This document shows, piece by piece, positions 3,741-56,414 of a stretch of 64,000 bases of DNA. The stretch is taken from positions 2,046,001-2,110,000 of the forward strand of contig NZ_CP132957.1 in the NCBI RefSeq assembly GCF_030863805.1, written 5' to 3'. A program made the translations under genes and the position numbers. Origin of the DNA: Kineothrix sp. MB12-C1. Lineage in GTDB: Bacteria > Bacillota > Clostridia > Lachnospirales > Lachnospiraceae. The notes beneath the pieces are model-generated. The model made no database searches, was not told the DNA's origin, and saw only the letters and a list, made by a program, of their open reading frames with translations. The first letter of the stretch is position 1; the number at the start of each line of letters is the position of its first letter.

Positions 3741-3781
3741 ATAAGGGAGTTGTAACTGCGAGGGTACTGAAGAGGAAGGCA

Positions 3782-4993
3782 ATGGATAGTGAATATACAG
3801 TAATAGGGGCTCTTTTGAAAATGGAGCGTATAAAACAGAATAAAGGGCAAAAGGAAGTTTGTTATGGGATCTGTGTGCCTTCCTATTTGAGCAAGATAGA
3901 GCATGGTACGGTGAATCCGGATAACGAAATTATTAAGCAATTATATGAACGGCTTGGAATTTCATATGAAATTGATAAGAAAGTGCTTTCTGAGTATAGG
4001 GAAGGGATTTCCAGGTATTTTCACCTTCTTCATTATCATATGGATACTGAAGAAGTTTACGCGGAGCTGCTAGAAGCAGATTCTCAGCTTTTGTATAGTG
4101 CCTTTGCTGTTGACTGGTTAATTATTAAAGGAATTGAGGGGGAGCCGGTTCTTCCACAGATAGGGCGATTGAAGGAGGCTATGAGTGCGGAACAAAAGGC
4201 ATATTATTTATGGCTGTGTTTTAAAGAATATACAGATTCCGCACAGAGGGTATTAGATTATGAAAAAGCATGTACAATAATTAATAATTCCTTCGCGATG
4301 ATTCAATTGTGTAGGGCATATTTTTATCACGGAGATTATCCGGCAATACATAGGATGGAAAATAGAACTGTGGCGGCGGCATTAGAGGAAGGGAATACCT
4401 ATTACTTGGCGGAATACTATTTTTTTAATGGTTCTGCTTATGCCTGCCTGGATATGGAAGAGATGATGATAGCAAATTATAATCGTAGTATCTGCCTATT
4501 GCAAAACACCGGGTGGAAAGAACGTATGCCTGATCTTTACTATAATATGGGAGCCTCCTATATTGCCCTTAAGAAGTATAAGCTAGGTTTGGAGTACTTA
4601 TTAAAAGCACAGGAACTTCAAAAAGAGTCAGAGTTTTTTACAATTCACAAGTTAGCAATTGCCTATATACGTCAAGGAAAAATGGAAGAAGGCAGGGATT
4701 GTCTTAGAAGAATAAAAAAATTATTTTTAGATGAAAAAGCCTATACCGAATTGGAATATTTGATGTATGAGGAAGCATGCATGGAGTGTGAAAAGGGATT
4801 CTTGGATAATCCTGAATACATGAAGTTATTGGACAAATTAATTAAGGTAATTGAAAAGGATAGTCATTTTGGGTTCCTATATTTCTATAAAGAAATTATA
4901 GTAAAAGCTTACGAAAGACAGAGAAAGTATAAAAAAGCTTTGGAGTTCGAACAGAAAATTTCTTCTATAGTTATAAAAATGAACACTAAGTAA
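3782..4993 (+). CDS. XRE-type regulator with TPR domain (RRNPP-like)
   Basis: 403 residues. The first 65 residues form a helix-turn-helix of the Cro/C1 type (LLKMERIKQNKGQKEVC ... YLSKIEHG), and the rest is all-helical with tetratricopeptide-like repeats, most evident near 180-330. This layout is that of PlcR/Rgg/Rap-related regulators that sense peptides or other ligands through the TPR part. No candidate pheromone gene with a signal sequence lies in the 93 bases before the next gene, so peptide control is only a possibility. The MFS transporter gene follows on the same strand and is the likely target. A perfect palindrome GAGAAATTTCTC (5003-5014) between them could be an operator. Confidence 0.75.
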   Translation: MDSEYTVIGALLKMERIKQNKGQKEVCYGICVPSYLSKIEHGTVNPDNEIIKQLYERLGISYEIDKKVLSEYREGISRYFHLLHYHMDTEEVYAELLEADSQLLYSAFAVDWLIIKGIEGEPVLPQIGRLKEAMSAEQKAYYLWLCFKEYTDSAQRVLDYEKACTIINNSFAMIQLCRAYFYHGDYPAIHRMENRTVAAALEEGNTYYLAEYYFFNGSAYACLDMEEMMIANYNRSICLLQNTGWKERMPDLYYNMGASYIALKKYKLGLEYLLKAQELQKESEFFTIHKLAIAYIRQGKMEEGRDCLRRIKKLFLDEKAYTELEYLMYEEACMECEKGFLDNPEYMKLLDKLIKVIEKDSHFGFLYFYKEIIVKAYERQRKYKKALEFEQKISSIVIKMNTK

Positions 4994-5086
4994 TACTTAT
5001 AGGCGAGAAATTTCTCAAGAATATTACTTTTACAATATTTAAGTTTGTTGCTAGAATAGACCTATCGATAAGATAGGAGAAATAAA

Positions 5087-6322
5087 ATGAGTGATTCACA
5101 GAAAAAAACTGTTTGGACAAAAGATTTTTCATGTATTACGGTTGCAACTATTTTGACAGCTATCGGCGGAGAGGCTATGAACCTACCGATAAGTTTATTG
5201 GTATTCGATGAGACACAATCAACGTTACTGGCTGCTTTAGTAATGGTCTGCGGGATGCTTCCTGACATTATTTTACCGGTACTTGTAGCGCCGTTTATTG
5301 ACAAGGGGGAGAAGAAGAAGTGGGTGATAGGGTTGAACCTCATTATGGTAATGCTGTATGCGGTCATGGGGTTGTGGATAAGCGGCCATGAATTTTCTTA
5401 TGGAATCTATCTCATCTTTGTTTTGGCGGTCGGTACTATTTCTGTTCTTTATCGTTTGGCTTATGATGCATGGTATCCTGATTTAATTCCTGTGGGGATG
5501 GAGCAAAAGGGATATGCGGTAAGCGGGACGATATATCCTGTAGTAATTGTAGTTATGTCCCCGCTTGTTACTTTTATTTATGGAAGAGTATCGATGGGAC
5601 ATCTTTTTTTCATAGTGGCTGTAATTACCCTTATAGCCGTTATAATAGAAGGCATTATAAAATCGGATAAAAGAAGCGAGCGGGAGATTTATACTTTTAA
5701 GCAGTATTGGGAAGATATCATAGATGGATTTTCTTATATGAAGAAAGAAAAAGGGATACGCAATATTTATACCTATATGAGTATAACGAATGGAGTATCG
5801 GGCGGTATTGATGTAATTACGCGTGCTTATTATCAGACGCAGCCATGGCTGAGCGTTACGATGCTTGGCTTTTTAAAGAGTGCTGAGATGATAGGGCGGG
5901 TTTTAAGCGGTCTGTTTCAATATAAGAAGGATATACCGGTGAAGAAACGCTACCCATTCACGAAGTTTGTATATGTATTTTATGATTGTATGGATGCATT
6001 ATTGTTATTTATGCCATATCCTTTCATGCTTCTGAATCGTTTCATATGCGGAGGGTTGGGTAACTATAGTGCAACTATAAGGTCGGCGGCGGTACAATCC
6101 TATCTGCCTCAAGAAATGCGCGCAAGAGTAAATGCATTTTTCAGTGTAATATTTTCTATTGGCGGCATTATTTTTCAATTGATCGGTGGAATATTGGGGC
6201 AAATTATGCCATACCGATATGCGGCATTGATTATGGGTATTGTAACATTGATAAGTGTATACTTTCTTATTATTTTGCCGGCCAAAGACAATTGTCCGGT
6301 TTACGAAGCGACTCGTTCATAA
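5087..6322 (+). CDS. MFS transporter
   Basis: 411 residues with about twelve hydrophobic segments, the layout of major facilitator drug or metabolite exporters. I cannot name the substrate. The ribosome site AGGAG (5076-5080) is partly held in a small hairpin, CCTATC (5061-5066) with GATAGG (5072-5077), which could dampen translation. It lies 93 bases after the XRE-TPR regulator gene on the same strand, so that regulator probably controls it. It ends before a new promoter region with two palindromes. Confidence 0.8.
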   Translation: MSDSQKKTVWTKDFSCITVATILTAIGGEAMNLPISLLVFDETQSTLLAALVMVCGMLPDIILPVLVAPFIDKGEKKKWVIGLNLIMVMLYAVMGLWISGHEFSYGIYLIFVLAVGTISVLYRLAYDAWYPDLIPVGMEQKGYAVSGTIYPVVIVVMSPLVTFIYGRVSMGHLFFIVAVITLIAVIIEGIIKSDKRSEREIYTFKQYWEDIIDGFSYMKKEKGIRNIYTYMSITNGVSGGIDVITRAYYQTQPWLSVTMLGFLKSAEMIGRVLSGLFQYKKDIPVKKRYPFTKFVYVFYDCMDALLLFMPYPFMLLNRFICGGLGNYSATIRSAAVQSYLPQEMRARVNAFFSVIFSIGGIIFQLIGGILGQIMPYRYAALIMGIVTLISVYFLIILPAKDNCPVYEATRS

Positions 6323-6360
6323 GTATAAAAGCACTTTCCTTTCAGATGTTTATTATATAC

Positions 6361-6415
6361 CATTGACAACTTTAGTTGTCAATGGTATTATAATTATGAC
6401 AATTAAAGTTGTCAT
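6361..6415 (+). promoter_or_regulatory. Promoter with two palindromic operators
   Basis: CATTGACAACT and AGTTGTCAATG (6361-6384) form a near-perfect palindrome. A second copy of the same half-sites, ATGACAA and TTGTCAT, lies at 6396-6415, with centres 33 bases apart, about three helical turns. TTGACA (6363-6368) with TATTAT (6386-6391) at 17 bases makes a promoter inside the first operator, and TTGTCA (6409-6414) with TAGATA (6432-6437) is a weaker second one. The likely binder is the XRE protein encoded at 6467, giving autoregulation. Confidence 0.65.
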
Positions 6416-6466
6416 ATGAATGGAAAATTGATAGATAAATAGAAATAAGAAGGAAGGATAATTGGA

Positions 6467-6685
6467 ATGCCATTGTATAATCAGTTAAAAGAATACCGTG
6501 CGAAGAAGAATCTGAATCAACAGCAGCTCGGTAGTCTGGTTGGAGCTTCCAGACAGACGATAAGCTTGATAGAGAGAGGAGATTATTCTCCCTCTGTGAC
6601 CTTGGCAATAAAAATTGCAAAGGTATTTGATGCGGCAGTTGAGGATATATTTAGTTATAGCGAGGAGGACGGAAATGAAGAATGA
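6467..6685 (+). CDS. Small XRE-family regulator
   Basis: 72 residues, essentially one helix-turn-helix domain: LKEYRAKKNLNQQQLGSLVG then ASRQTISLIERGDYSPSVTLA, followed by a typical dimer helix (IAKVFDAAVEDIF). Such short regulators are almost always encoded with a membrane-protein partner, here the DUF3169 protein that overlaps its 3' end by 11 bases. Twin TTGACAA/TTGTCAA operators upstream suggest that it represses its own operon. Confidence 0.9.
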   Translation: MPLYNQLKEYRAKKNLNQQQLGSLVGASRQTISLIERGDYSPSVTLAIKIAKVFDAAVEDIFSYSEEDGNEE

Positions 6686-7487
6686 TAATGTATCGGTGAA
6701 TGGAAGACAAGAAGAAGTTATTAAAAAAGATAATAAAAAGGCGAAGAAAAGCTTTACCGTTATTATGTTCATATGTTTGATCGTAGGAGCCATTTTAGGA
6801 TTTCTTACTACATTAGCGGGAAGGGAACTCCTTATAATTACAAAGGTATTCCAAGAATTCATGGAAAACAATGCTGGGGTGTTGAGTATCATTTTGGGTG
6901 GTATTATGATCGGTATAACGGTGGCAGCAAGTATTTGGTGTGTCTGGGAGATTGGCCGGAATAAAAAGAAAGCTGTGGAACTTATAGAGAAGGATGATGA
7001 TATTGAACTTGAAAAAATTGAGAAAAGGCTCTCTTACGGTCTATGGATAACGAACGGTTTGATGATTTTACAATTTCTCTTTTTTTCTGTTATGATATTT
7101 GTTTTTATGAATTTTCTCGCTATATACGAGATAGTAGGATTATTAGTAGGTACGGCTATTATATTTTTGGTAGGAATTTTAGTGCTTATGTTATTACAGC
7201 AGAAACAGATAGATTGTATCAGATTCCTAAATCCCGAGAAAAAGGGAAGTATATATGACATGAATTTCCACAAGAAATGGGAAGAAAGCTGTGATGAGGC
7301 GGAGCTCTTTGTAATATATAGAGCAGCATACAAAGCTTATCGTGCAGCAAATATATTATATATAATATTATGGGCATTCTTTATGCTTATGGGAATGGCT
7401 GTTGGAATTGGTTTTCTTCCTATTCTCACAATTATAATTCTATGGGCCACTTCAACGATGGTATATTCCTATCATTGCATGAAATAA
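6675..7487 (+). CDS. DUF3169 family membrane protein
   Basis: 270 residues from ATG 6675, which has a GGAGG seven bases upstream; a longer open frame from 6615 is ignored because it would overlap the XRE gene by 71 bases. Six hydrophobic segments are visible (roughly residues 28-48, 72-92, 123-143, 151-173, 221-241 and 245-263), with a soluble helical stretch between the fourth and fifth. DUF3169 proteins of Firmicutes occur next to small XRE regulators, as here; their function is unknown to me. Translational coupling with the regulator is likely. Confidence 0.75.
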   Translation: MKNDNVSVNGRQEEVIKKDNKKAKKSFTVIMFICLIVGAILGFLTTLAGRELLIITKVFQEFMENNAGVLSIILGGIMIGITVAASIWCVWEIGRNKKKAVELIEKDDDIELEKIEKRLSYGLWITNGLMILQFLFFSVMIFVFMNFLAIYEIVGLLVGTAIIFLVGILVLMLLQQKQIDCIRFLNPEKKGSIYDMNFHKKWEESCDEAELFVIYRAAYKAYRAANILYIILWAFFMLMGMAVGIGFLPILTIIILWATSTMVYSYHCMK

Positions 7488-7503
7488 GAATATCGAAGAT
7501 GGA

Positions 7504-7532
7504 TTGACATTTATTTGGGTAAATGATATATT
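7504..7532 (+). promoter_or_regulatory. Sigma-A promoter of the ABC-F leader
   Basis: TTGACA, 17 bases, TATATT. It lies about 400 bases upstream of the Lsa-like gene and starts a leader that carries a repeat hairpin, a possible leader peptide and a terminator. Confidence 0.7.
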
Positions 7533-7544
7533 GAAGAAAATCGG

Positions 7545-7570
7545 TAACTGTGAGAGTACTGAACAGTTAT
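7545..7570 (+). repeat. TAACTG-family solo hairpin repeat
   Basis: A 26-base member with arms TAACTGT and ACAGTTA around a GAGAGTACTGA core. Flanks are GAAAATCGG (left) and GAAAATTCA (right), six of nine positions alike, read as a decayed target duplication. It lies just downstream of the promoter and would be part of the leader RNA. Confidence 0.7.
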
Positions 7571-7930
7571 GAAAATTCAAAAGAATGGAGATGTGTGGAT
7601 GATTATTTATTCTTGCTAATCAGTAACTGAATGAGATGCATGATAGTTTGGTCTGTATGAATAATATACAGCGGCCAGGATTCTTTATCATGTGAGCAGG
7701 AATAATTTCAATCGGACATCTTTTTATAAATTACTATAGGCTGTTTATGGCAGGCAACGTTATTTTTTCGTTCATACCATAGTTTATGTGATTTTTCGAG
7801 TGCAGATAATTATTTCTGCACTCTTTTTTATGTATTAGGAAATTTCTAATACGTAAATCCCTGCGTGCAAGTTATGCGCAGCTACGCGCGCGGAACAAAA
7901 GCTATGCTGCCGGAGTATGGAGGTATTTGT
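7571..7930 (+). promoter_or_regulatory. Attenuator-type leader of the ABC-F gene
   Basis: After the promoter, GGAG (7587-7590) precedes a seven-codon reading frame, ATG 7599 to TAA 7619, product MIIYSC. An intrinsic terminator (7798-7829) then lies about 100 bases before the gene, followed by another hairpin (GTATTAG / CTAATAC, 7832-7852) and a GC-rich stretch. Transcription attenuation responding to ribosome-targeting antibiotics is established for several ABC-F resistance genes such as vmlR and lmo0919; the parts here fit that scheme. Which stem competes with the terminator cannot be told by eye. Confidence 0.55.
7798..7829 (+). terminator. Leader terminator (attenuator) upstream of ABC-F gene
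   Basis: GAGTGCAGA pairs with TCTGCACTC and is followed by TTTTTT. It lies between the promoter and the ABC-F start codon with no other gene for it to end. Confidence 0.8.
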
Positions 7931-9526: not shown

Positions 9527-9534
9527 GTAATTAT

Positions 9535-9562
9535 AAATGCAGGGCCGGGAGGCCCTGTATTT
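9535..9562. terminator. Bidirectional terminator
   Basis: AAATGCAGGGCC and GGCCCTGTATTT form a 12-pair stem with a GGGA loop between two convergent genes, the ABC-F gene (+) and the LacI gene (-). Confidence 0.7.
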
Positions 9563-9573
9563 GATTTCGGCTT

Positions 9574-10578: not shown

Positions 10579-10627
10579 TGTTAATAGCTCCTTATCTCAT
10601 TGTCACCTGTGGTTCTATAATTAAAGC

Positions 10628-10672
10628 GTAACAGTGCAGTCCCTCACTATTACGTGGGAAAATCCATTAAAC
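10628..10672 (-). repeat. TAACTG-family repeat, right part, minus orientation
   Basis: Read on the minus strand it has the middle module (AATGGATTTTCCCACG) followed by the right hairpin (GTAATAGTG ... CACTGTTAC), matching the second half of the composite copies at 24645 and 26749. The left half is missing or decayed. It lies about 50 bases upstream of the LacI gene start. Confidence 0.6.
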
Positions 10673-10847
10673 CCATTATAGTAAAGAATGTAAAAAATGT
10701 AAAGAAAAATGAAAAGTAAGAAAAGAATATATAAATAAAAAATAAATAATTGTATTTCAAAAATAAGTTATTAGTAAATATATATAACAAAATGAAAAAA
10801 TATTTATATATAATGATTGAATTGTTATAACCAATGTAAAATTATAA

Positions 10848-10899: not shown

Positions 10900-10941
10900 G
10901 TAGAAATTTTACAGAAAATGATATAAGGAGAGAAAAGCCAG

Positions 10942-13201: not shown

Positions 13202-13215
13202 ATAATTATTGTTCG

Positions 13216-13272
13216 TAACTATTCAGCGGGTCCGCGCATTTACTGCGCGGACCGTAAGAATACGTGGATTTA
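13216..13272 (+). repeat. TAACTG-family repeat, left module, in operon
   Basis: It begins TAACTATTCAG and contains the module's GC-rich hairpin in perfect form: GGTCCGCGC pairs with GCGCGGACC, then CCGTAAGAATA. It lies 15 bases after the binding-protein stop and upstream of the ATPase ribosome site. The right module is absent or too decayed to see. In the mRNA this hairpin could protect the binding-protein message from 3' decay. Confidence 0.7.
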
Positions 13273-17808: not shown

Positions 17809-18129
17809 AAAGTAAGATCCTTTCCTGAAGGTTTTACCATTTATAGCATTAAAAGTTAATATAATAATATACCAATCTAAAGAAGAAATATTGAAGATTT
17901 CATTAATTTTTGAAGAAATAAAAAGTGAGTTACGATAGAAAAGAAAATAAGATATGAAAATAATGGAAGTATTGTATAATACTTACAAATAAATATAATA
18001 TAAATAATATATTTTATAGATTATTAACAAATTATTTACAAATTATCATTCCCACTTCATATGTTGCTGGTATGATGGAATCATAGACAGCGGATTGGTT
18101 TCCTACGGGGAGACTTAGGTGAATTTCAG
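17809..18129. other. AT-rich divergent intergenic region
   Basis: This stretch separates the divergent metallophosphoesterase and DUF3810 genes. It is very AT-rich, with several TATAAT-like strings and a GTATTGTATAATAC near-palindrome, but no promoter that I can place with confidence and no supported gene. Confidence 0.4.
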
Positions 18130-18159
18130 TAACAGTTCAGTCGAAGGCTGAACTATAAC
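18130..18159 (+). repeat. TAACTG-family solo hairpin, variant
   Basis: Thirty bases starting TAACAGTTCAG and ending CTGAACTATAAC, with AGTTCAG / CTGAACT arms. Flanking nine-base strings GAATTTCAG (18121-18129) and GAACTTCAT (18160-18168) agree at seven positions, read as a target duplication. It ends 21 bases before the DUF3810 start and close to its GGAGG. Confidence 0.6.
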
Positions 18160-23720: not shown

Positions 23721-23864
23721 TCTACTTAACTCTGCCCTATCGGACATTATAACATACCTTTAGGGTATTGTTCGATAGAAAGTTTTTGATTTGGGAAATG
23801 GGATAAATTTTCTGTAGTGGGAAATAATGATAGTGAATTAAGTAATAACTATTACATTAAGTAG

Positions 23865-23931
23865 TAACTATTCAACAGGTTTGTACATTTACTGTGCTGA
23901 CCGTAAGAAGACGTGGAAAAATGAGTGAAGG
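23865..23931 (+). repeat. TAACTG-family repeat, left module (with a decayed tandem copy)
   Basis: It starts TAACTATTCAAC, has a decayed version of the module hairpin (GGTTTGTAC / GTGCTGACC), then CCGTAAGAAGACGTGG. A second, shorter match (TAATAACTATTAC) lies just upstream at 23843, so two left ends are tandem. The element runs up to the ribosome site of the lipoprotein gene at 23949. Confidence 0.6.
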
Positions 23932-24596: not shown

Positions 24597-24644
24597 CACT
24601 TGCCCCCTATACCCTTGATAGGTTCTATTTTATGGGGTATAATA

Positions 24645-24774
24645 AAACTATTCAGTAGCTCTGCGTGTATACTGCGTTAACCGTAAGAATATGTGAAGAG
24701 ATAAGTGAGAATGCCATTACTAAAGGTGATTCCAATGGATTTTCACGTAACAGTGAGTGTTACTGAACTGCTAC
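24645..24774 (+). mobile_element. TAACTG-family composite element (MITE-like), 130 bases
   Basis: All modules are present: left end ACTATTCAG, decayed GC hairpin, ACCGTAAGAATATGTG, an inner hairpin around AAAGGTGATT and AATGGATTTTCACG, and the right hairpin GTAACAGT ... ACTGCTAC. The right arms carry A:T where other copies have T:A. No clear target duplication remains. It ends 36 bases before the HAD gene. Confidence 0.75.
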
Positions 24775-24810: not shown

Positions 24811-25473
24811 ATGACGAATACAATTATATTTGACATGGATGGCGTATTATTTGATACGGAAAGAATTAGCTGTGGATGTTGGGAGGAAGTAGGGCAGGCA
24901 ATGGGCCTTGGCGATTTGAGCGAGGGTGTGAGAGGTTGCGTCGGTTTGAATAAAAATGATGCGGAAATACTGATGAAGGAACTTTATGGGGAGGAGTTTC
25001 CCTTTGATGAGTTCCGTACTACTGTGCGTGCATTGATGAAGCAAAGGCTTCTTGAAGAAGGGCTTCCTATAAAAGAAGGAGTTATGGAAATACTCGATTA
25101 TCTGGATAAGGAAGGATATATTATCGGACTTGCATCATCCACAATGAAAAAAACTGTAATGAGTCATTTGGAGAAAGCCCAAATTACTCATTATTTTCGA
25201 GTTGTTATTACGGGAGATATGGTAAAGCATAGCAAGCCAATGCCTGATATTTATTTGATGGCATGCGAGGAGTTGGGAGTTACACCGACGAATGCCATTG
25301 CTATTGAAGATTCTCCAAACGGAATACGCTCAGCTTATCGTGCCGGTATGAAGCCGATTATGGTACCGGATCTCATTGAACCTACTCCGGAAATAGAGTC
25401 CATGCTTTATGGGAAGTTCTATTCTCTGTTGGATGTTATGGATTACTTAAAAATGACAAGCAATGGTGCTTAA
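24811..25473 (+). CDS. HAD-superfamily phosphatase (beta-phosphoglucomutase-like)
   Basis: 220 residues with the four HAD motifs: FDMDGVLFDTE (nucleophile and acid Asp), LASST (motif II), KHSKPMPDIYL (motif III Lys) and IEDSPNGI (motif IV). The helical cap after motif I (about 15-85) is of subclass I, as in beta-phosphoglucomutases and small-sugar phosphatases. The substrate cannot be named. The gene stands alone, between two copies of the repeat family; the ribosome site before ATG is weak (AAGGTTATTGACG). Confidence 0.85.
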   Translation: MTNTIIFDMDGVLFDTERISCGCWEEVGQAMGLGDLSEGVRGCVGLNKNDAEILMKELYGEEFPFDEFRTTVRALMKQRLLEEGLPIKEGVMEILDYLDKEGYIIGLASSTMKKTVMSHLEKAQITHYFRVVITGDMVKHSKPMPDIYLMACEELGVTPTNAIAIEDSPNGIRSAYRAGMKPIMVPDLIEPTPEIESMLYGKFYSLLDVMDYLKMTSNGA

Positions 25474-25544
25474 TGGATTTTCTCTTACTTTCCCGTGTAT
25501 TCTCACGGTCAGCGCAGCAAATGTGCAGACCTGATGAATAGTTA
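25472..25544 (-). repeat. TAACTG-family repeat, left module, minus orientation
   Basis: On the minus strand: TAACTATTCATCAG, hairpin GGTCTGCAC / GCGCTGACC, GTGAGAATACACGG, then GAAAATCCATTA. It starts right at the HAD stop codon (25471-25473), so the gene's end abuts the element. The right module is missing. Confidence 0.65.
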
Positions 25545-25618
25545 TAAAATTTATAACCTTAATTATTGGTCACAAGATGAAAAAGACAGGTGTCCGTTAG
25601 AGTAGAATGGAGGAAAAC

Positions 25619-26725: not shown

Positions 26726-26748
26726 GTGTTAGAATAAAAGTAATATTA

Positions 26749-26896
26749 TAACTGTTCAGTAGGTCTGCGCATTTGTTGCGCTGACCGTAAGAATGAGTGG
26801 AAAGAATAAGTGAAAATCCCATCACTGAAGGTGATTTTAATGGATTTTCATAAAGCAAATTTTGCTTATGTAACTGTGAGGGGACTGAACAGTTAT
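26749..26896 (+). mobile_element. TAACTG-family composite element (MITE-like), best-preserved copy
   Basis: 148 bases. Ends are TAACTGTTCAGTA and ACTGAACAGTTAT. Order of modules: left end, hairpin GGTCTGCGC / GCGCTGACC, CCGTAAGAATGAGTGG, AAAATCC-ATCAC hairpin with GTGAT and GGATTTT, AAGCAAA-TTTGCTT hairpin, right hairpin GTAACTGT / ACAGTTAT. Flanks GTAATATTA (26740-26748) and ATAATATTA (26897-26905) agree at eight of nine positions, a probable target duplication. No ORF is inside, so it must be moved by an enzyme encoded elsewhere. It ends 19 bases before the BusR-like gene. Confidence 0.8.
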
Positions 26897-29775: not shown

Positions 29776-29779
29776 AATG

Positions 29780-29805
29780 TAACTGTAAGGATACCGAACT
29801 GTTAC
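29780..29805 (+). repeat. TAACTG-family solo hairpin with perfect 9-base duplication
   Basis: TAACTGTAAGG ... ACCGAACTGTTAC, 26 bases, lies exactly between two copies of AATAAAATG (29771-29779 and 29806-29814). It sits in the 57-base gap between the permease and binding-protein genes of the betaine operon. Confidence 0.8.
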
Positions 29806-31935: not shown

Positions 31936-32036
31936 GTAACAGTTCGATCCTCTCACCGTCACAAATGTGACTGTTCAGTATCCTCACTGTCACATGGAAA
32001 ATCCGTTAAAATCACCTTTGATGATGTTCACTTATT
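31936..32036 (-). repeat. TAACTG-family repeat: middle module plus two tandem right hairpins
   Basis: On the minus strand the middle module (AATAAGTGAACATC, AAAGGTGATTTTAACGG) is followed by hairpin GTGACAGT / ACAGTCAC (31967-31993) and a second hairpin GTGACGGT / ACTGTTAC (31936-31962). The first shows G:C where others have A:T at the third pair. The TSCPD gene's last codons AAT AAG TGA lie within the element's own sequence. Confidence 0.65.
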
Positions 32037-32273
32037 ACTTATCATGGCTGTAAGTGCGTTTGCAAGTTGATCTGGGCAGGAGGTTACCCTATGGCCGCAG
32101 GTGATTCCCTGTAACCGTTCGATAGCATCCTGTGCCTTCATTCCTTCTACTAGCTTGGAGATTCCCTGTAAATTACCGTTGCATCCGCCTGTAAAGGAAA
32201 CGGATTGTATAATGTCATCACTTAGTTCAACATCTATGGATGAGGGGCATACGCCCTTTGGCTGATATTTCAT
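32028..32273 (-). CDS. TSCPD domain-containing protein
   Basis: 81 residues: MKYQPKGVCPSSIDVELSDD ... GGCNGNLQGISKLVEG ... ITCGHRVTSCPDQLANAL. Four cysteines and the TSCPD-type signature (GVCPSSID, GGCNGN, SCPDQLA) match the small stand-alone TIGR03905-type family, related to the C-terminus of vitamin B12-dependent ribonucleotide reductases. Function unknown; metal binding is plausible. The final Asn-Lys-stop comes from a repeat element that runs into the gene's end. Confidence 0.8.
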   Translation of the reverse strand: MKYQPKGVCPSSIDVELSDDIIQSVSFTGGCNGNLQGISKLVEGMKAQDAIERLQGITCGHRVTSCPDQLANALTAMISNK

Positions 32274-36426: not shown

Positions 36427-36467
36427 TTCTGAAGCAATTCGGAACTTAATATTAATATAGATACAGG

Positions 36468-36493
36468 TAACTGTGAGGGTACTGAACAGTTAC
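36468..36493 (+). repeat. TAACTG-family solo hairpin
   Basis: 26 bases, the cleanest arms of the family: TAACTGT and ACAGTTA around GAGGGTACTGA, extended by an outer G:C pair. Flanks AGATACAGG and AGATGTAGT agree at six of nine positions. It lies 41 bases after pgi and just before that gene's terminator. Confidence 0.75.
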
Positions 36494-36630: not shown

Positions 36631-36734
36631 ATAGCTGGCTAATAATTGGAATCGGTGATAAAATAAGAAATTAGATTTCAGCGTATAAGAATGTGTAATA
36701 TTTTTAAAATATTATGCGTTCTGCTTAATAAGGA

Positions 36735-36905
36735 ACAATGTGAGAATCATTGACAGCTTACTCTGAGGTGATGCGGACGGCTTGCCCAAGATGCCATTGT
36801 ACAAGGGATATATTTCAGATGTATGAGAAGGCGGGTAAATCGATAGAAGCAAAGTCCTAAGACTTACTGGAATCAATTAATTAATAGGTGAAGCGATGTT
36901 TCGCC
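36735..36905 (+). promoter_or_regulatory. Probable cobalamin riboswitch
   Basis: The stretch has, in order, GAGGTGATGCGG, a GC hairpin arm, GATGCCATTGTA, GAGAAGGCGGG and AAGTCCTAAGAC, which line up with the conserved blocks of cobalamin aptamers (GCCACTG, GGAAGGC, and AGTCAGGAGACC). A hairpin TAGGTGAA / TTCGCCTA (36884-36905 region) follows and could be the expression platform just before the ribosome site. The downstream genes (DUF4430 with ECF component) are commonly B12-regulated. The match is by eye and imperfect. Confidence 0.6.
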
Positions 36906-37368: not shown

Positions 37369-37866
37369 ATGCCAATTAAAAAAATAACGAGAATAGCACT
37401 TTTGAGTGCAGTTCTCTATGTTGCCAAGGTGGCACTGGAATTTCTTCCGAATGTGGAGTTAGTCTCTTTCTTGATCATCATTTATACACTTGTATTCGGA
37501 GCAGAGACTTTTATTATAATTACCGTATTCAATATGTTCGAATTAATACAATGGGGATTTGGCATTTGGTGGGTATCCTATCTCTATGTGTGGCCTCTTC
37601 TTTGCCTCTTTGTTCTTCTGTTGAAGCGCTTCCTGGGGGAGGAATTCGTACTTTGGGCTATTGCTTCGGGAGTTTTCGGACTGATATTCGGATCTTTATT
37701 CGCTATTGCTTATCTTCCTGTGGATCATTCCTATGCGTTAGCATATTGGATTAGCGGTTTGACCTGGGATGTATGGCATGGAATCTGTAATTTTTTAATT
37801 ATGTTATTAATAGGAAAACCAGTATATCAAGTGATGATGATAGCGAAAAAGAAAGATGATTCGTAA
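37369..37866 (+). CDS. ECF transporter substrate-specificity component
   Basis: 165 residues, five or six hydrophobic segments, the size and look of ECF S components (ITRIALLSAVLYVAKVALEF ... SGLTWDVWHGICNFLIMLLIG). It would bind the vitamin in the membrane and use an energising EcfA/T module encoded elsewhere. With the adjacent DUF4430 gene and the probable riboswitch, cobalamin is the best guess for substrate. The stop codon TAA is the first three bases of a repeat element inserted at the gene's end. Confidence 0.75.
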   Translation: MPIKKITRIALLSAVLYVAKVALEFLPNVELVSFLIIIYTLVFGAETFIIITVFNMFELIQWGFGIWWVSYLYVWPLLCLFVLLLKRFLGEEFVLWAIASGVFGLIFGSLFAIAYLPVDHSYALAYWISGLTWDVWHGICNFLIMLLIGKPVYQVMMIAKKKDDS

Positions 37867-37889
37867 CTGTTCAGTATCTTCACAGTTAC
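37864..37889 (-). repeat. TAACTG-family solo hairpin forming a stop codon
   Basis: 26 bases with arms TAACTGT and ACAGTTA. Flanks GATGATTCG (37855-37863, coding) and GATAATTCC (37890-37898) agree at seven of nine positions. The ECF gene's stop TAA is the start of the element, and its final codons are the left target copy. Confidence 0.75.
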
Positions 37890-41714: not shown

Positions 41715-41864
41715 TTTTTATATTAATGGCTATGCCTATGTGCGCAGAGGCTGTGAAGATTTCCAGATGACGGAGGAAGGAATGAAATAGTGACAGAAGT
41801 AACAGCGGCATACAGCCACGGCCGATAAAAGGCGTGGTTTATATTCTGTCTCATAGTTCAGAGA

Positions 41865-41890
41865 TAACTGTGAAGGTACTGAACAGTTAT
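41865..41890 (+). repeat. TAACTG-family solo hairpin
   Basis: 26 bases, arms TAACTGT and ACAGTTA with an outer A:T pair where the copy at 36468 has G:C. Flanks GTTCAGAGA and ATTAAGAGT agree at six of nine positions. Its right flank contains the stop codon of the AraC gene at 41892 (minus strand). Confidence 0.7.
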
Positions 41891-41891
41891 A

Positions 41892-44648: not shown

Positions 44649-44663
44649 TTGATAACGATAGGG

Positions 44664-44718
44664 TAGCTATTCAGTAGGTCTGCGCATTTATTGCGCAGAC
44701 CGTAAGAATACTTGGAAA
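44664..44718 (+). repeat. TAACTG-family repeat, left module
   Basis: It starts TAGCTATTCAGTAG and has a perfect module hairpin, GGTCTGCGC with GCGCAGACC, then CGTAAGAATAC. Compared with the copy at 13216, the fifth stem pair is T:A instead of C:G, a compensatory change. It lies between kduD and the RpiB-like gene and runs into the latter's GGAAAGGAG. Confidence 0.7.
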
Positions 44719-44734
44719 GGAGTAAATTAGAAAA

Positions 44735-45376
44735 ATGAAAATAGCTTTAATTAATGAAAACAGCCAGGCGGCTAAGAATGAATTGATTTATGATACTTTG
44801 AAAAATGCAGTGGAGCCACTCGGTCATGAAGTATATAATTATGGAATGTACAGTGCGGAGGACCCGAATGTTCTTACTTATGTGCAAAATGGTATTCTCG
44901 CAGCAGTGCTTCTTCAAGCGGGAGCAGTTGACTATGTGGTGACCGGCTGCGGTACGGGAGAAGGCGCTATGCTCGCCTGCAATTCCTTCCCGGGAGTGCT
45001 GTGCGGACATATTGTAGACCCTTCAGATGCTTATATGTTTGCTCAGATCAACGATGGTAATGCGATTGCTCTTCCTTTTGCCAAAGGCTTCGGCTGGGGT
45101 GCAGAGCTGAATCTTTCTTATATTTTCGAGAAGTTATTCTCCTGCGAAAGCGGACAGGGGTATCCGAAGGATAGAGTGATTCCTGAGCAGAGAAATAAAA
45201 AGATTCTCGACGAAGTGAAGAAAGTGACTCATCAGGATATGGTAACAATTCTAAGGAATCTGGACAGAGAGTTGGTAAAAGGAGCTTTATCGGGTGAAAA
45301 ATTTAAAGAGTATTTCTTTGCAAATTGTAAAGATAATGCAATTGCATCTTGTGTAAAAGAAATTTTGGAAGGTTAA
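44735..45376 (+). CDS. RpiB/LacA/LacB-family sugar isomerase
   Basis: 213 residues, longer than usual RpiB (about 150). The N-terminal 150 residues follow the family: MKIALINENSQAAKNELIY, then VVTGCGTGEGAMLACNSFPG (the anionic hole and catalytic Cys-region), and the PSDAYMFAQINDGNAIALPFA block. The last 60 residues are a helical extension. Members isomerise aldose/ketose phosphates. In kdu loci such proteins are frequent partners, but their substrate is not settled. A repeat element lies just upstream; the next gene starts 14 bases downstream. Confidence 0.75.
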   Translation: MKIALINENSQAAKNELIYDTLKNAVEPLGHEVYNYGMYSAEDPNVLTYVQNGILAAVLLQAGAVDYVVTGCGTGEGAMLACNSFPGVLCGHIVDPSDAYMFAQINDGNAIALPFAKGFGWGAELNLSYIFEKLFSCESGQGYPKDRVIPEQRNKKILDEVKKVTHQDMVTILRNLDRELVKGALSGEKFKEYFFANCKDNAIASCVKEILEG

Positions 45377-48202: not shown

Positions 48203-48221
48203 AATATAGTAATACTTTTTA

Positions 48222-48256: not shown

Positions 48257-48299
48257 GTGTATAAAAACTAAAGCATAGTTTTATAAATGGTGTATAATA

Positions 48300-48463: not shown

Positions 48464-48518
48464 TGTATAATAGATAATCACGGAACTCATAAGAAAATTA
48501 GCAGAGGACAAGATAGGA

Positions 48519-51079: not shown

Positions 51080-51176
51080 GCTTTTATACACTTTTTTTAA
51101 AATATTGGAATTTTATATATGTTCTCCGGCAATTATACTAAAGTTACAAACATTAAGAAATAAAGGAGGATAACAA

Positions 51177-52499: not shown

Positions 52500-52508
52500 A
52501 AGATAAAG

Positions 52509-52557
52509 AAGGTCCCATCGCATGTACAATATTATATTGTGATGTGATGGGACTTTT
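52509..52557 (+). terminator. Intercistronic terminator-like hairpin
   Basis: GTCCCATC and GATGGGAC pair, extended inward by GTACAATA / TATTGTGA-type pairs, then TTTTT. It lies between the binding protein and permease genes, where partial termination and 3' protection commonly boost the binding protein. Confidence 0.75.
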
Positions 52558-52593
52558 TGAATATATTAATTGTTTTGGAAAGGAAGGTTGCGT

Positions 52594-53493
52594 ATGCAGT
52601 CAAATAAACGGGAGAAAAAGGAAGAGATACTCGGATATTTTTTTATTGTGCCGGCAGTGGCTTATATGCTTATATTTATTGGATACCCGATTGCGTATAA
52701 CTGGATTATCAGCTTTCAGGATGTGACTGCGAAGACATTGGGAAGTGCGGCAAGGGATTTTATCGGTTTTGGCAATTATAAGATGATTTTTATGGATGTT
52801 ACATTTAGAAATGCTCTTCTTCACACATTTATTTATACCATTGGATGTCTGGTCATCCAATTCTCACTTGGATTTTTGTTTGCGATGTTTTTTGCTAAGA
52901 AGTTTACACTCTCGAAACCAATCAGAGGATTCATCGTTATCAGCTGGATGCTTCCGGTTACGGTAACGGCACTTGTTTTTAAATTTATGTTTGCAGAAAG
53001 TAATGGTATCATCAATACGATTTTGATGAATTTAAATATAATTAAGCAGCCGATCGGGTGGCTTTTGCAGGGTAATACGGCTATGATTGGATTGATTATC
53101 GCTAACTCCTGGGTAGGAGTTCCTTTCAACATGCTGCTGCTTACGACAGGACTTAATAATATTCCCGGCGATATTTATGAAGCGGCCGATATCGATGGGG
53201 CGAATGGAATGCAGAAGTTTACTAAGATCACACTCCCTTTGCTCAAGCCAACAATTATGTCTGTATTAGTGCTCGGTTTCGTTCTAACCTTTAAGGTGTT
53301 CGATCTTGTCTATGTAATGACAGGAGGCGGACCGGTAGATGCGACAGAAGTATTGTCCACATATTCTTATAAGCTGTCCTTCCAGTTATTCCATTTTGGT
53401 GAAGGAGCTGCTGTGGCTAATGTACTATTTGTCTGCCTGCTCTTAGTGGCACTGGTTTATTTAAGGACAATTTCAAAAGATGAAGTGATGTAA
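52594..53493 (+). CDS. Sugar ABC transporter permease (MalF/UgpA type)
   Basis: 299 residues from ATG 52594 (GGAAGG upstream), six membrane segments. The coupling motif EAADIDGANGMQKFTKITLPLLKP near residue 200 is that of sugar importer permeases. It pairs with the permease encoded at 53523 and the binding protein at 51177. No ATPase gene is present in the locus, so a shared MsmX/UgpC-type ATPase elsewhere must be used. Confidence 0.92.
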   Translation: MQSNKREKKEEILGYFFIVPAVAYMLIFIGYPIAYNWIISFQDVTAKTLGSAARDFIGFGNYKMIFMDVTFRNALLHTFIYTIGCLVIQFSLGFLFAMFFAKKFTLSKPIRGFIVISWMLPVTVTALVFKFMFAESNGIINTILMNLNIIKQPIGWLLQGNTAMIGLIIANSWVGVPFNMLLLTTGLNNIPGDIYEAADIDGANGMQKFTKITLPLLKPTIMSVLVLGFVLTFKVFDLVYVMTGGGPVDATEVLSTYSYKLSFQLFHFGEGAAVANVLFVCLLLVALVYLRTISKDEVM

Positions 53494-53522
53494 GCGAAAT
53501 TCGTGCGAAAGGAGTTTTGAAA

Positions 53523-54359
53523 ATGAAAAGTATACACCTTACTCTTAAACAAAAAAATATCTTACTCAGCATAGTAGCCGTAATCATCGCTTGTATTTTC
53601 TTATTTCCGCTCTACTGGATTGTCATTAATTCCTTTAAGCTGGATAGCGAGATTTTCGCGAGCAGACCGACTATGTGGCCTGAGAAGTTCACCTTAAATG
53701 CATATAAAGATCAGTTAGGAAGTCTGTCTACCACCATGAAGAACTCAATTATTATTGCAGTCGGTTCCATGTTATTATCCTTATGTTTGTCCGTTCCGGC
53801 AGCCTATGGATTGGCAAGGTATAAAGTGCGTGGAATGAAGATGTTTGTATTGATTTTCCTTATTACGCAGATGCTCCCTGCTTCTTTGGTGCTGACCCCC
53901 TTATTCCTGATTTTTTCTAAATTGGGAATTCTGAATACGTATTGGGCACCGATTTTATCGACAGCGACCATATCGATACCGTTTATTGTATTGATGTTGC
54001 GCCCGGGATTTTTAAGTATGCCAAAAGAGTTAGAAGATGCGGCGAAGATAGATGGCTGTAATGCATTGACGGCGTTCTTCCGTATTGCCATTCCCATTTC
54101 AAAACCTACGGTAATTACCGCGTCCTGTTTTAGCTTTGTGTTTGCATGGAATGACTTGGCTTATTCCATGACCTTTAATACAAAAGAAATGATGAGACCG
54201 ATGACCTCGGCTATTTATACATTTATGAATCAGTATGGAACGAAATGGAATAGTATTATGGCGTTCGGCGTGTTGCTGATTCTTCCGAGCTGTATTATCT
54301 TCGTAACGATGCAGAAGCATATTGTGGAAGGTATGACCAGCGGTTCTGTAAAAGGATAA
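53523..54359 (+). CDS. Sugar ABC transporter permease (MalG/UgpE type)
   Basis: 278 residues from ATG 53523 (GGAG eight bases upstream; a TTG at 53517 is in frame). Six membrane segments and the coupling motif EDAAKIDGCNALTAFFRIAIPISKP. Second half of the importer channel. It is followed closely by the GH31 gene, so transport and hydrolysis are co-expressed. Confidence 0.92.
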   Translation: MKSIHLTLKQKNILLSIVAVIIACIFLFPLYWIVINSFKLDSEIFASRPTMWPEKFTLNAYKDQLGSLSTTMKNSIIIAVGSMLLSLCLSVPAAYGLARYKVRGMKMFVLIFLITQMLPASLVLTPLFLIFSKLGILNTYWAPILSTATISIPFIVLMLRPGFLSMPKELEDAAKIDGCNALTAFFRIAIPISKPTVITASCFSFVFAWNDLAYSMTFNTKEMMRPMTSAIYTFMNQYGTKWNSIMAFGVLLILPSCIIFVTMQKHIVEGMTSGSVKG

Positions 54360-54400
54360 CATCATAAATTATAGTTGAGAAAGAAAGGAAATTAAGAAAG

Positions 54401-56386
54401 ATGAGCGTATTTAGACAGGAAGGAAATTGCTTGAAGTTTCATTATGATGCGGAGGAACTTTGGATTGAGCCCTGGGGAGCTAATAGCTTCCGGGTTCGTG
54501 CTTCTAAGATGGCACAGATGCCTCAGGAATGCTGGGCGCTTGAGATGGAAGTGGAGAAGACCGAAGCTGAAATAACGATAGAAGAAGGATGCGCATCGAT
54601 TAAAAACGGTAAGATTAAAGCGACAGTTTCCCGTTACGGAAAGCTGACTTTTTATAATCAGAAGGACGAAGTTCTTCTGGATGAATATTTAAGAAACCGC
54701 TTGGATGTATTTGCTGATTATTGCAGTGCTTTGGAGGTAGAGGCGAGAGAGTTTAAACCGATTCCGGGTGGAGACTATCATTTATCCATGAGATTCGTGT
54801 CGAATCCTGAAGAGAAAATCTATGGTATGGGGCAGTATCAGCAGCCTTATTTGAATCTAAAGGGCGCGGACTTGGAACTGGCACAGAGAAACTCTCAGGC
54901 TAGTGTACCATTTGCAATTTCCTCCCTTGGATATGGATTCCTCTGGAATAATCCGGCAGTAGGAAGAACGATTTTTGGTAAGAACATTACTACTTGGGAG
55001 GCGTATTCCACAAAAGGGCTTGATTATTGGATTACAGCGGAAGATACACCTGCGAAAATAGAAGAAGCATATGCTAAGGTAACGGGAACAGTACCGATGA
55101 TGCCTGATTATGCTATGGGATTCTGGCAGTGTAAGCTTCGTTACCAGACGCAGGAAGAATTGCTGGAAGTAGCGAGAGAATATAAGAGAAGAGGACTTCC
55201 CATTTCTGTTATTGTTATTGATTATTTCCATTGGCCGCTGCAAGGTGATTGGAGATTTGATCCGGAATATTGGCCCGATCCTGATGCAATGATAGCAGAG
55301 CTGAAAGAGATGGGTATCGAGCTTATGGTATCCATATGGCCCACCGTAGACTATCGCAGCGAGAACTTCGATGAGATGAGAGAAAAGGGATATTTAATCC
55401 GCACCGATAGAGGATTCCGTATGGTGATGGATTTCCAAGGCAATACGGTTCACTACGATGCTACGAATCCGGAAGCCAGAGAATATGTATGGCAGAAGGC
55501 GAAGAAGAATTATTACGATAAAGGCGTAAAGGTCTTCTGGCTGGACGAAGCAGAGCCGGAATATACGGTTTATGATTTCGATAACTACCGTTATCATATG
55601 GGGCCTAATGTGCAGATCGGTAATATCTATCCTGCTTTGTATGCGAAAACCTTCTTTGATGGTATGAAGGCAGAAGGACAGGAGAATATTATCAACTTAC
55701 TGCGTTGTGCATGGGCAGGTTCTCAGAAATATGGTGCTCTCGTATGGTCTGGAGATATTCACTCCAGTTTCTCAAGTTTGCGCAATCAGTTGGCAGCAGG
55801 ATTGAATATGGGAATTGCAGGAATTCCTTGGTGGACCACAGATATTGGCGGTTTCCATGGTGGGGATCCGACAGACCCTGACTTCCAGGAATTGTTAGTT
55901 CGATGGTTCGAATATGGGACCTTCTGCCCGGTTATGCGTCTGCATGGATATAGAGAACCTTTGAAAGAGCCCATGGGAAAAGAAGGTGGAGCGGCTTGTG
56001 TGTCCGGAGCGGATAATGAAGTATGGTCCTTCGGTGAAGAAGCTTATGAAATCTGCAAGACCTATTTACAGATAAGAGAAGATATGAAGCCTTATATTAC
56101 AGAGCGTATGAAAGAAGCCCATGAAAAGGGAACGCCCGTTATGCGTCCTCTGTTCTATGACTTCCCTCAGGATAAAAAAGCATGGGAAGTCGAGGATGAG
56201 TATATGTTCGGTCCTGATTACCTCGTTGCACCAATCCTTTATGCAGGCATGAGAAAACGAGAAGTTTACTTGCCGGCAGAAGACAATTGGAAGAATTATT
56301 GGACCGGAGAGGTATTCCGGGGAGGAAGTGTTATTGAGGTGGATGCTCCGCTTGCACAGCTTCCGGTATTTGTAAGAAGTAAATAA
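54401..56386 (+). CDS. GH31 family alpha-glycosidase
   Basis: 661 residues, no signal peptide, hence cytosolic. N-terminal beta-sandwich (about 1-215), then a GH31 barrel with nucleophile region VFWLDEAEPEY (Asp), general-acid region LVWSGDIHSSFSSL, and GIPWWTTDIGGF; the RLHGYREP and MRPLFYDFP blocks follow. GH31 includes alpha-glucosidases, alpha-xylosidases and sulfoquinovosidases; the WLDEAEPEY form resembles the alpha-xylosidase/oligosaccharide subgroup, but the aglycone cannot be predicted. The stop codon lies inside the left target copy of a repeat element. Confidence 0.88.
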   Translation: MSVFRQEGNCLKFHYDAEELWIEPWGANSFRVRASKMAQMPQECWALEMEVEKTEAEITIEEGCASIKNGKIKATVSRYGKLTFYNQKDEVLLDEYLRNRLDVFADYCSALEVEAREFKPIPGGDYHLSMRFVSNPEEKIYGMGQYQQPYLNLKGADLELAQRNSQASVPFAISSLGYGFLWNNPAVGRTIFGKNITTWEAYSTKGLDYWITAEDTPAKIEEAYAKVTGTVPMMPDYAMGFWQCKLRYQTQEELLEVAREYKRRGLPISVIVIDYFHWPLQGDWRFDPEYWPDPDAMIAELKEMGIELMVSIWPTVDYRSENFDEMREKGYLIRTDRGFRMVMDFQGNTVHYDATNPEAREYVWQKAKKNYYDKGVKVFWLDEAEPEYTVYDFDNYRYHMGPNVQIGNIYPALYAKTFFDGMKAEGQENIINLLRCAWAGSQKYGALVWSGDIHSSFSSLRNQLAAGLNMGIAGIPWWTTDIGGFHGGDPTDPDFQELLVRWFEYGTFCPVMRLHGYREPLKEPMGKEGGAACVSGADNEVWSFGEEAYEICKTYLQIREDMKPYITERMKEAHEKGTPVMRPLFYDFPQDKKAWEVEDEYMFGPDYLVAPILYAGMRKREVYLPAEDNWKNYWTGEVFRGGSVIEVDAPLAQLPVFVRSK

Positions 56387-56388
56387 GG

Positions 56389-56414
56389 TGACTATAAAGT
56401 TATTGAACAGCTAC
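56389..56414 (+). repeat. TAACTG-family solo hairpin, decayed
   Basis: TGACTATAAAG ... TTGAACAGCTAC, 26 bases, with weakened arms. Flanks TAAATAAGG (including the GH31 stop) and TAAGATAAG agree at five of nine positions. It lies between the GH31 and dehydrogenase genes. Confidence 0.5.

What the first reader, a model, noticed from the sequence alone, without database searches (positions are those of the whole stretch)
3752..56414. A dense family of modular hairpin repeats that behaves like a MITE
At least 15 intergenic sites share ends TAACTG and CAGTTA plus one extra pyrimidine. Solo hairpins of 26-30 bases: 7545, 18130, 29780, 36468, 37864, 41865, 56389. Composite copies: 24645-24774 and 26749-26896. 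Partial copies: 10628, 13216, 23865, 25472, 31936, 44664 and perhaps 3752. The full form is left end, GC-rich hairpin (GGTCTGCGC / GCGCAGACC), CCGTAAGAATA, middle hairpin, right hairpin. None contains an ORF. One copy per about 4 kb is high for a bacterial chromosome, and the build recalls pneumococcal BOX, though the sequence differs from any repeat I know.
Basis: seen in the sequence. Interest (0 to 1): 0.85.

Follow-up and report, generated by a model that had tools for sequence, protein, structure and literature searches.

The report
Hairpin MITE family of Lachnospiraceae
The repeats are real: they are very short, non-coding mobile DNA elements that fold into hairpins, copied into more than a hundred mostly intergenic sites of this bacterium and also present in many related bacteria, but the enzyme that moves them was not found.

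Summary
A covariance model built from 17 copies finds 137 matches (115 at E<1e-3) in the 3.94-Mb genome. No Rfam family matches above its threshold.

The family is mobile. Its ends are GTAACTRTTCAG...CTGAAYAGTTAC. Of 63 two-ended copies here, 23 have an exact 8-bp target duplication and 14 one with a single mismatch. Six of the window's seven solo hairpins have one with at most 2 mismatches. Solos (27 bp), 60-104-bp forms, 130-158-bp full forms and one-ended fragments are thus one MITE family and its deletion products.

The same architecture occurs in 57 of 299 family genomes, one per genus. Stems differ between genomes but covary, so the fold is conserved, not just the ends.

Copies here lie in sense with flanking genes 90:11; in a congener the ratio is 27:14. 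This suggests selection after insertion.

No autonomous partner was found among IS66, IS256, ISL3, IS1595 and DDE_Tnp_1 transposases or by end-plus-duplication scans of the DNA held; other families were not searched.

Verdict: a new, unusually structured MITE family. Its build resembles BOX; kinship to BOX was not tested.

The parts
26748..26896 (+). full-length copy (149 bp): left end, GC hairpin, CCGTAAGAAT linker, middle hairpin, AAAGC hairpin, right hairpin/end
   Evidence: R1 161.2 bits, E 8e-33; 8-bp duplication gtaatatt/ataatatt, 1 mismatch
24644..24774 (+). old near-full copy without the AAAGC hairpin; no duplication recognisable
   Evidence: R1 106 bits; flanks differ at 5 of 8
13215..13268 (+). 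left-half copy (left end, GC hairpin, linker)
   Evidence: R1 E 1.6e-9; homology ends at element position 54
23864..23929 (+). left-half copy ending at the start predicted (at 23925) for a + gene
   Evidence: R1 E 1.5e-10
44663..44719 (+). left-half copy beginning 72 bp upstream of the start codon at 44735
   Evidence: R1 E 1.2e-10
25475..25545 (-). left-half copy, antisense to the flanking + genes
   Evidence: R1 E 2.6e-9 for 25432-25545
31967..32070 (-). right end plus middle part of a copy, left end lost
   Evidence: R1 E 1.1e-5
31936..31963 (-). right-hairpin-like fragment beside the previous one
   Evidence: R1 E 0.99, model positions 121-147; weak on its own
10628..10679 (-). right hairpin plus part of the middle stem
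   Evidence: E 6.2, read by eye; weak on its own
7544..7570 (+). solo right hairpin, 27 bp
   Evidence: duplication gaaaatcg/gaaaattc, 2 mismatches
18129..18159 (-). solo hairpin of another subtype, 31 bp
   Evidence: duplication gaatttca/gaacttca, 1 mismatch
29779..29805 (+). solo right hairpin, 27 bp
   Evidence: exact duplication aataaaat
36467..36493 (+). solo right hairpin, 27 bp
   Evidence: duplication agatacag/agatgtag, 2 mismatches
37863..37889 (-). solo right hairpin, 27 bp
   Evidence: duplication gatgattc/gataattc, 1 mismatch
41864..41890 (+). solo right hairpin, 27 bp
   Evidence: duplication gttcagag/attaagag, 2 mismatches
56388..56414 (+). diverged solo right hairpin, 27 bp
   Evidence: end pattern with 1 mismatch; flanks differ at 4 of 8

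Best explanation
This is a family of miniature, non-coding transposable elements (MITEs) of Lachnospiraceae. A DDE-type transposase acting in trans, not identified here, recognises about 12-bp ends (GTAACTRTTCAG...CTGAAYAGTTAC), cuts A+T-rich, mostly intergenic DNA with an 8-bp stagger and inserts the element, leaving an 8-bp target duplication. SHOWN: shared ends, 8-bp duplications, copies at many sites, a near-identical recent subfamily, presence in many genera, and internal hairpins conserved with compensatory changes. INFERRED: the transposase class, the stagger, and the need for the internal fold. The element is modular. Deletions between short similar stretches (GTAACT at the left end and in the right hairpin; GTAAGAATAC in the linker and GTGAGGGTAC in the right hairpin) would turn the full form into 27-bp solo hairpins, 60-bp forms and half elements; two-ended products keep the original duplication, as solo LTRs do for retroelements. 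With time antisense copies appear to be lost, so that old copies sit as sense hairpins in leaders and between co-directional genes, where they probably affect mRNA folding, stability or translation (inferred).
For: 137 model matches in the genome. 8-bp duplications with <=1 mismatch in 37 of 63 two-ended copies and in other genomes. 21 of 117 solo-hairpin candidates with <=2 mismatches, against 0 of 117 with the right flank shifted by 20 bases. Eight near-identical 135-151-bp copies at unrelated sites. Same architecture in 17 copies from 9 genomes with covarying stems: 12 of 27 pairs changed on both sides; score 0.333 against 0.150 shuffled (0 of 500) and at most 0.085 slid. 57 of 299 family genomes, this one included; 0 of 24 genomes from other families of the order (strict filters). 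Sense:antisense 90:11 here, 27:14 in G011.
Against: No autonomous element with these ends was found. IS66: no match here or in G011; the ends read for an IS66 copy in G014 and the left boundary read for a group in G009 differ, the others were not delimited. IS256: one copy here without these ends. ISL3: none here, one sub-cut-off match in G017. IS1595: none. DDE_Tnp_1: one gene here without these ends. Scans for longer elements with these ends and duplications gave none. No exact empty site was shown. 14 of 63 two-ended copies have flanks differing at 4 or more of 8 positions. The fall of antisense copies with duplication decay is not significant within this genome (13:0 against 12:4, p = 0.11).
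Confidence: 0.9

Rival explanations
1. The copies are cis-regulatory RNA leaders, like a riboswitch or attenuator family, spread by duplication or recruited by selection, not by transposition. The left half (GC hairpin plus CGTAAGAA) would be the functional unit.
For: Compensatory stem changes. 44 left-only against 26 right-only copies among 134; in 38 of the 44 homology stops at consensus positions 40-71, keeping the left hairpin. Median 40 nt from the end of homology to the next sense start codon in the 40 copies that have one. Strong sense bias.
Against: 8-bp target duplications and inverted ends, near-identical copies at unrelated sites, downstream genes of many kinds (read by eye), copies between convergent genes (7 of 134) and antisense in tandem contexts (11 of 134).
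Confidence: 0.06
2. They are REP/BIME-type palindromes moved by a Y1 (RAYT) transposase through single-stranded DNA.
For: Short intergenic palindromes and a strand bias in this genome.
Against: 8-bp target duplications and inverted ends; that REP/RAYT and IS200/IS605 elements make no duplication is recalled. Little strand bias in G011, 32 lead to 24 lag by GC skew. RAYT genes were not searched.
Confidence: 0.02
3. They are relatives by descent of pneumococcal BOX.
For: Similar build: end modules with a removable middle module, hairpins, intergenic sites (passages of PMC3049150). One G011 copy has the middle and right modules twice (L220:4961-5176), which recalls repeated boxB.
Against: Found in 57 of 299 genomes of this bacterial family and in 0 of 24 from other families of the order. 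No Rfam match. Streptococci were not searched and BOX sequence was not compared.
Confidence: 0.02

Closest known systems
BOX elements of Streptococcus pneumoniae
   Same: Modular intergenic hairpin repeat: end modules with a middle module that may be absent or repeated; presumed parasitic; slow turnover (passages of PMC3049150). Here the middle hairpin is missing in 10 of 59 two-ended copies and doubled, with the right module, in one G011 copy (L220)
   Different: Other host group; solos here keep 8-bp duplications. PMC3049150 reports 60.8% of BOX insertions on the leading strand, mirroring coding bias; here 114 of 137 (by position, contig ends uncorrected), also close to the local gene bias (351 of 416 genes over 150 aa)
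RUP, Correia/NEMIS and ERIC (bacterial MITEs under 200 bp)
   Same: Non-coding, inverted ends, target duplication, hairpin RNA, intergenic (passages of PMC2229807 and PMC3049150)
   Different: Most of those are said to end in TA and RUP inserts at TA targets; here the duplication is 8 bp and the ends are GTAAC...GTTAC
MITEs of IS66 type (ends GTAA, 8-bp duplication; recalled)
   Same: First four end bases GTAA and 8-bp duplications; an IS66 copy in G014, whose transposase frame is split, has GTAAGCGTCAAATATG ends with an exact 8-bp duplication
   Different: Ends diverge after GTAA; no IS66 transposase match in this genome or in G011

Membership tests
MITE (general class) | short, no transposase gene | tested here: met
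   27-158 bp
MITE (general class) | terminal inverted repeats | tested here: met
   11-bp outer helix, 92.5% of cells paired in 17 copies from 9 genomes; position 7 fails in 6 of 17
MITE (general class) | target-site duplication of fixed length | tested here: met
   8 bp: 23 exact plus 14 with one mismatch of 63; also in other genomes
MITE (general class) | multiple dispersed copies | tested here: met
   137 matches at E<=1, 115 at E<1e-3
MITE (general class) | cognate autonomous element or transposase | tested here: inconclusive
   Five transposase families and end-plus-duplication scans of the held DNA found none; other families not searched
IS66-derived MITE | ends match an IS66 element, transposase in the same genome | tested here: not met
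   No PF03050 match in G000 or G011; the IS66 ends that could be read differ
pneumococcal BOX | boxA/boxB/boxC sequence | not tested
   No direct comparison made; Rfam scan without a match at gathering score
REP/RAYT | no target duplication (recalled) | tested here: not met
   8-bp duplications present
REP/RAYT | associated Y1 transposase | not tested
   no Y1 search was made
known Rfam RNA family | match at gathering score | tested here: not met
   Only a cobalamin riboswitch in the window; at relaxed E the element in L016 gave one match, RF04346 at 21 bits against a threshold of 48.5, E 1.2

The most novel reading that the evidence does not exclude
A transposon whose internal hairpins are maintained by compensatory evolution across many genera, so that the folded interior (GC hairpin, then CGUAAGAA or alike) has a job of its own: either recognition of a folded DNA strand by the transposase, or an RNA leader that makes insertions harmless or useful. 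Its left module has repeatedly been kept as a 5' leader a few tens of bases upstream of start codons of unrelated genes.
Probability: 0.25. Interest if true: 0.75.

Novelty: new member of a known kind. Interest (0 to 1): 0.52.

Why it matters
Lachnospiraceae are among the dominant gut bacteria (recalled), and no MITE family of theirs appeared in the listings of the paper searches made here (open-access papers only). One family with a clear 8-bp signature in 57 of 299 genera gives a marker for annotation, a route to an unknown transposase, and a natural experiment on what hairpin insertions do to mRNA. The covarying interior shows that something beyond the ends is under selection, and that can be tested.

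Tried and rejected
Partner transposase: PF03050/IS66 in 8 genomes, PF00872/IS256 in 4, PF01610/ISL3 in 4, PF12762/IS1595 in 4, PF01609/DDE_Tnp_1 in 3. No match was seen to be bounded by the element's ends. A search of this genome with the 13-bp end of the young subfamily gave 16 places: MITE copies and two fragments. Scans for longer elements with these ends and 8-bp duplications: 1.33 Mb of loci held at the time, overlaps included (its two hits look like a chance pair and two adjacent MITEs), 80 of the 120 loci (largest 183 bp), and 20 stretches of G261 and G289 (largest 139 bp).

A promoter at a fixed distance from the left end: no fixed TATAAT position among 43 left-only and 63 two-ended copies.

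Replication-only explanation of orientation: tandem pairs of lagging-strand genes hold copies in sense 7:1 (two of the seven lie near the contig start and were later counted as leading), while divergent plus convergent gaps favour the leading strand 20:4 (p = 0.0015). Neither cause alone fits this genome. In G011 divergent plus convergent is 5 lead to 10 lag.

A separate mobile unit made of the left half: 4 of 43 left-only copies had any <=1-mismatch repeat of the left 8-mer at 40-111 bases, at differing distances.

Phage or plasmid carriage: 5 of 50,697 phage records, all unannotated 'Bacteriophage sp.' contigs from human faeces; none of 72,556 plasmids; no exact match of one 28-base pattern in viral contigs. 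An exact 39-mer was not in genome contigs; a degenerate 28-mer was.

Empty-site test at the window copy: 15 congeners have the upstream gene; in 13 the downstream DNA could be read and lacks the element (G003 and G013 could not be read), but it is not collinear with this genome, so inconclusive.

Papers: searches (MITEs in Lachnospiraceae/Clostridia and genera; end sequences; 23 papers, by title none on repeats; BOX). Listings only, and searches listed 20 of 368, 10 of 356 and 15 of 53. Passages read: PMC3049150, PMC10969869, PMC2229807.
Full report
CHECK OF THE OBSERVATION. The end pattern TAACTRTTCARYA occurs 15 times in the 64-kb window against 0.90 expected, and the core CCGTAAGAATANNTGG 8 times against 0.48. 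The complete ends are RTAACT...AGTTAY. Only 3752 lacks support (E 5.3); 10628 and 31936 are weak. Rfam finds nothing but a cobalamin riboswitch in the window at gathering scores. Two further loci scanned at relaxed E gave two sub-threshold matches, one of them inside the element (RF04346, 21 bits against 48.5, E 1.2).

COPIES IN THE GENOME. The window is 2046001-2110000 of a single 3,935,490-base contig; the core pattern has 68 places there. A covariance model R1 from 17 copies gives 137 matches at E<=1, 115 of them below 1e-3; 150 of 1980 first-look candidates were scored, so this is a lower bound. Three matches near the contig end repeat three near its start with small differences and were dropped, leaving 134. 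The end pattern gives 325 sites against 60 for the reversed control.

ANATOMY. The full form (about 148 bp) is: left end GTAACTATTCAGCA; hairpin GGTCTGCGCATTTACTGCGCTGACC; linker GTAAGAATACGTGGAAAGATAA; middle stem GTGAAAATCC/GGATTTTCAC enclosing ATCACC/GGTGAT; optional hairpin AAAGCAATCTTTGCTTT; right hairpin GTAACTGTGAGGGTACTGAACAGTTAC, whose 3' arm is the right end. Forms of about 132 bp lack the AAAGC hairpin. Local alignment of 134 copies gives 59 with both ends (10 of them without the middle hairpin), 44 left only, 26 right only and 5 with neither.

TARGET DUPLICATIONS. In the 63 copies that an earlier script called two-ended, the 8 bases on either side agree exactly in 23 and with one mismatch in 14; the others have 2 (8 copies), 3 (4), 4 (5), 5 (3), 6 (3) or 7 (3) mismatches. 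Chance for <=1 mismatch is 25/65536 on even base usage, somewhat higher in A+T-rich DNA. In other genomes the scans required <=1 mismatch for short elements, so they list only such cases: 53 elements, 30 with exact duplications, in 61 loci of G011, G017, G018 and G034 (none in the two G034 loci; one element counted twice; a few of other MITE types); 39 in 80 of the 120 genome-contig loci. In 20 stretches of G261 and G289, each centred on a model hit, 17 of the 20 central hits have an exact or one-mismatch duplication. Solo hairpins: 117 candidates in 556,773 bases, which include right hairpins of full copies; 21 have <=2 mismatches, against 0 for the same sites with the right flank shifted by 20 bases; two of the seven exact ones are hairpins of another type. 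Six of the window's seven solos have <=2 mismatches, one of them exact. Deletion derivatives thus keep the duplication of the parent insertion, or are mobile themselves; the data do not separate these. For the 60- and 61-bp forms the junctions fall in short similar stretches (read by eye), which favours deletion.

AGE. Eight copies of a 135-151-bp subtype starting GTAACAGTTCAGAYAGG are nearly identical at unrelated places, so the family has moved recently here. Related subtypes, and other short repeats with such ends and duplications but different interiors, occur in several genomes.

DISTRIBUTION. R1: 16 of 61 genomes, this one included; 0 of the 24 genomes from other families of the order (strict filters). 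R2, built from 17 copies of 9 genomes: 57 of 299 family genomes, each of a different genus and this one included, at E<=1e-4 (47 of 246 of good quality), with 11 candidates scored per genome, so copy numbers are capped. A scan of named genomes with a degenerate 28-mer stopped at 120 stretches; the 80 listed carry titles such as Eisenbergiella, Fusicatenibacter, Coprococcus comes, Blautia schinkii, Clostridium fessum, Hungatella, Butyrivibrio, unnamed Lachnospiraceae and less specific Clostridia names. Contigs of G011 and G261 have lengths equal to contigs of the sheep-rectum MAG RGIG6476 and of C. fessum SNUG30386; this identity is inferred.

CONSERVED FOLDING. In 17 copies from 9 genomes the first hairpin has quite different stems, for instance GGTCTGCGCA/TGCGCTGACC, GGACTTTGCA/TGTAAAGTCC, GCTCTGAACA/TGTTCAGAGC and GAATTGCGCA/TGCGCAATTC, with loops TTTAC or CTTGC (TTCAC and TTTGC once each) and a following CGT. 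For 27 named pairs, 92.3% of cells pair, 12 pairs change on both sides, and the covariation score is 0.333 against 0.150 (sd 0.015) in shuffles and at most 0.085 with slid partners. Six of ten pairs of hairpin 1, two of six of the inner middle hairpin and four of eleven of the end helix show double changes. In the end helix, position 7 fails to pair in 6 of 17 sequences. The outer middle stem was left out because its columns are not in register. The structure came from these sequences, and they are related (G001 and G003 may share one insertion), so the shuffle count is not a probability. Within this genome alone covariation is slight: 3 of 29 pairs with double changes, covariation term -0.07. 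Whether the fold acts as DNA or as RNA is not known.

ORIENTATION. By my own gene caller, copies in tandem gene contexts lie in sense with the genes 90 to 11 in this genome; the rest are 14+3 divergent (lead+lag), 6+1 convergent and 8+1 inside a predicted gene (134 in all, with three copies near the contig start re-assigned to the other replichore). Genes over 150 aa in the fetched stretches are on the leading strand in 351 of 416 cases. In G011, 57 copies give 27 sense, 14 antisense, 7 divergent, 8 convergent, 1 inside; Fisher test of 90:11 against 27:14 gives p = 0.0027; 27:14 itself gives p = 0.06. G018 gives 3:3 and G017 2:1. In this genome two-ended copies with more than 3 mismatches in the duplication are 13 sense to 0 antisense, those with exact duplications 12 to 4; the difference is not significant (p = 0.11). 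The gene caller is crude, and in the draft genomes strand was taken from GC skew.

LEFT HALVES. In 38 of 44 left-only copies the similarity ends between consensus positions 40 and 71, that is, after the left hairpin and before or at the start of the middle stem; 6 end later. A break inside the left hairpin would be poorly detected, but breaks further right would be easily seen, so the shortage there is real. From the end of similarity to the next sense start codon the median is 40 nt among the 40 copies with one; 4 have none. Sense orientation holds in 30 of 34 tandem cases of the 43 left-only copies. Downstream genes are of many kinds (read by eye). Right-only copies also often begin in the linker (7 of 26 at positions 41-60), so the linker may simply be a deletion hotspot. 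The alternative is that the left module is retained for a function; I rate that at about one in four.

PARTNER. Not found; see Tried and rejected. Of the transposases searched, this genome has one IS256-type gene and one DDE_Tnp_1 gene, and no IS66, ISL3 or IS1595 match. The enzyme may belong to a family not searched, or have been lost since the last burst.

COMPARISON. The build recalls pneumococcal BOX; PMC3049150 (passages) describes boxA/B/C modules, a middle module that may be absent or repeated, low turnover and 60.8% leading-strand placement mirroring coding bias. One G011 copy has its middle and right modules twice (L220:4961-5176). Small bacterial MITEs are treated in PMC2229807 and PMC10969869 (passages). 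Against these, the present family has an 8-bp duplication, other ends and another host group. I file it as a new MITE family: the class tests are met, except that the partner is unknown. IS66-MITE and REP tests are not met where made; BOX membership was not tested.

Noticed in passing
window 36699-36885 (+): Cobalamin riboswitch (RF00174, 46.5 bits), about 200 bases downstream of a solo hairpin.
   Followed up: no
G000 contig ends: 521/3897341, 7191/3903877, 9868/3906493: Matches near the start and end of the contig are near-identical pairs at offsets of about 3,896,700; the single contig probably overlaps itself by some 39 kb with small differences, i.e. an untrimmed circular assembly.
   Followed up: partly
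L173:2716-2880, L229:6997-7159, L126:2351-2633, L387:1299-1431: Other short repeats with GTAAC- or GTTAC-type ends and exact 8-bp duplications but different interiors (L126: beside a copy of this family), in several genomes: a wider group of MITEs possibly moved by the same kind of transposase.
   Followed up: partly
L220:4961-5176 (G011): A 216-bp copy in which the middle and right modules occur twice within one duplication (one mismatch), like a repeated boxB.
   Followed up: partly
L061 and L062 (G009 and G014): Two congeners carry their single match at what looks like the same site at the 3' end of a gene; in G009 the duplication appears to include the stop codon, in G014 the right end is lost (read by eye).
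   Followed up: partly
L030:1615-1687: Sub-threshold match to Clostridiales-1 RNA (25.2 bits, gathering 48).
   Followed up: no
L382 (G011:C38): A decayed DDE_Tnp_1 stretch with stops lies some 200 bases from a MITE copy with an exact duplication; no shared ends were seen.
   Followed up: partly
G000:C1:479198-479830: Two copies facing inward about 630 bases apart with a short open frame between them; not tested as a composite element.
   Followed up: no
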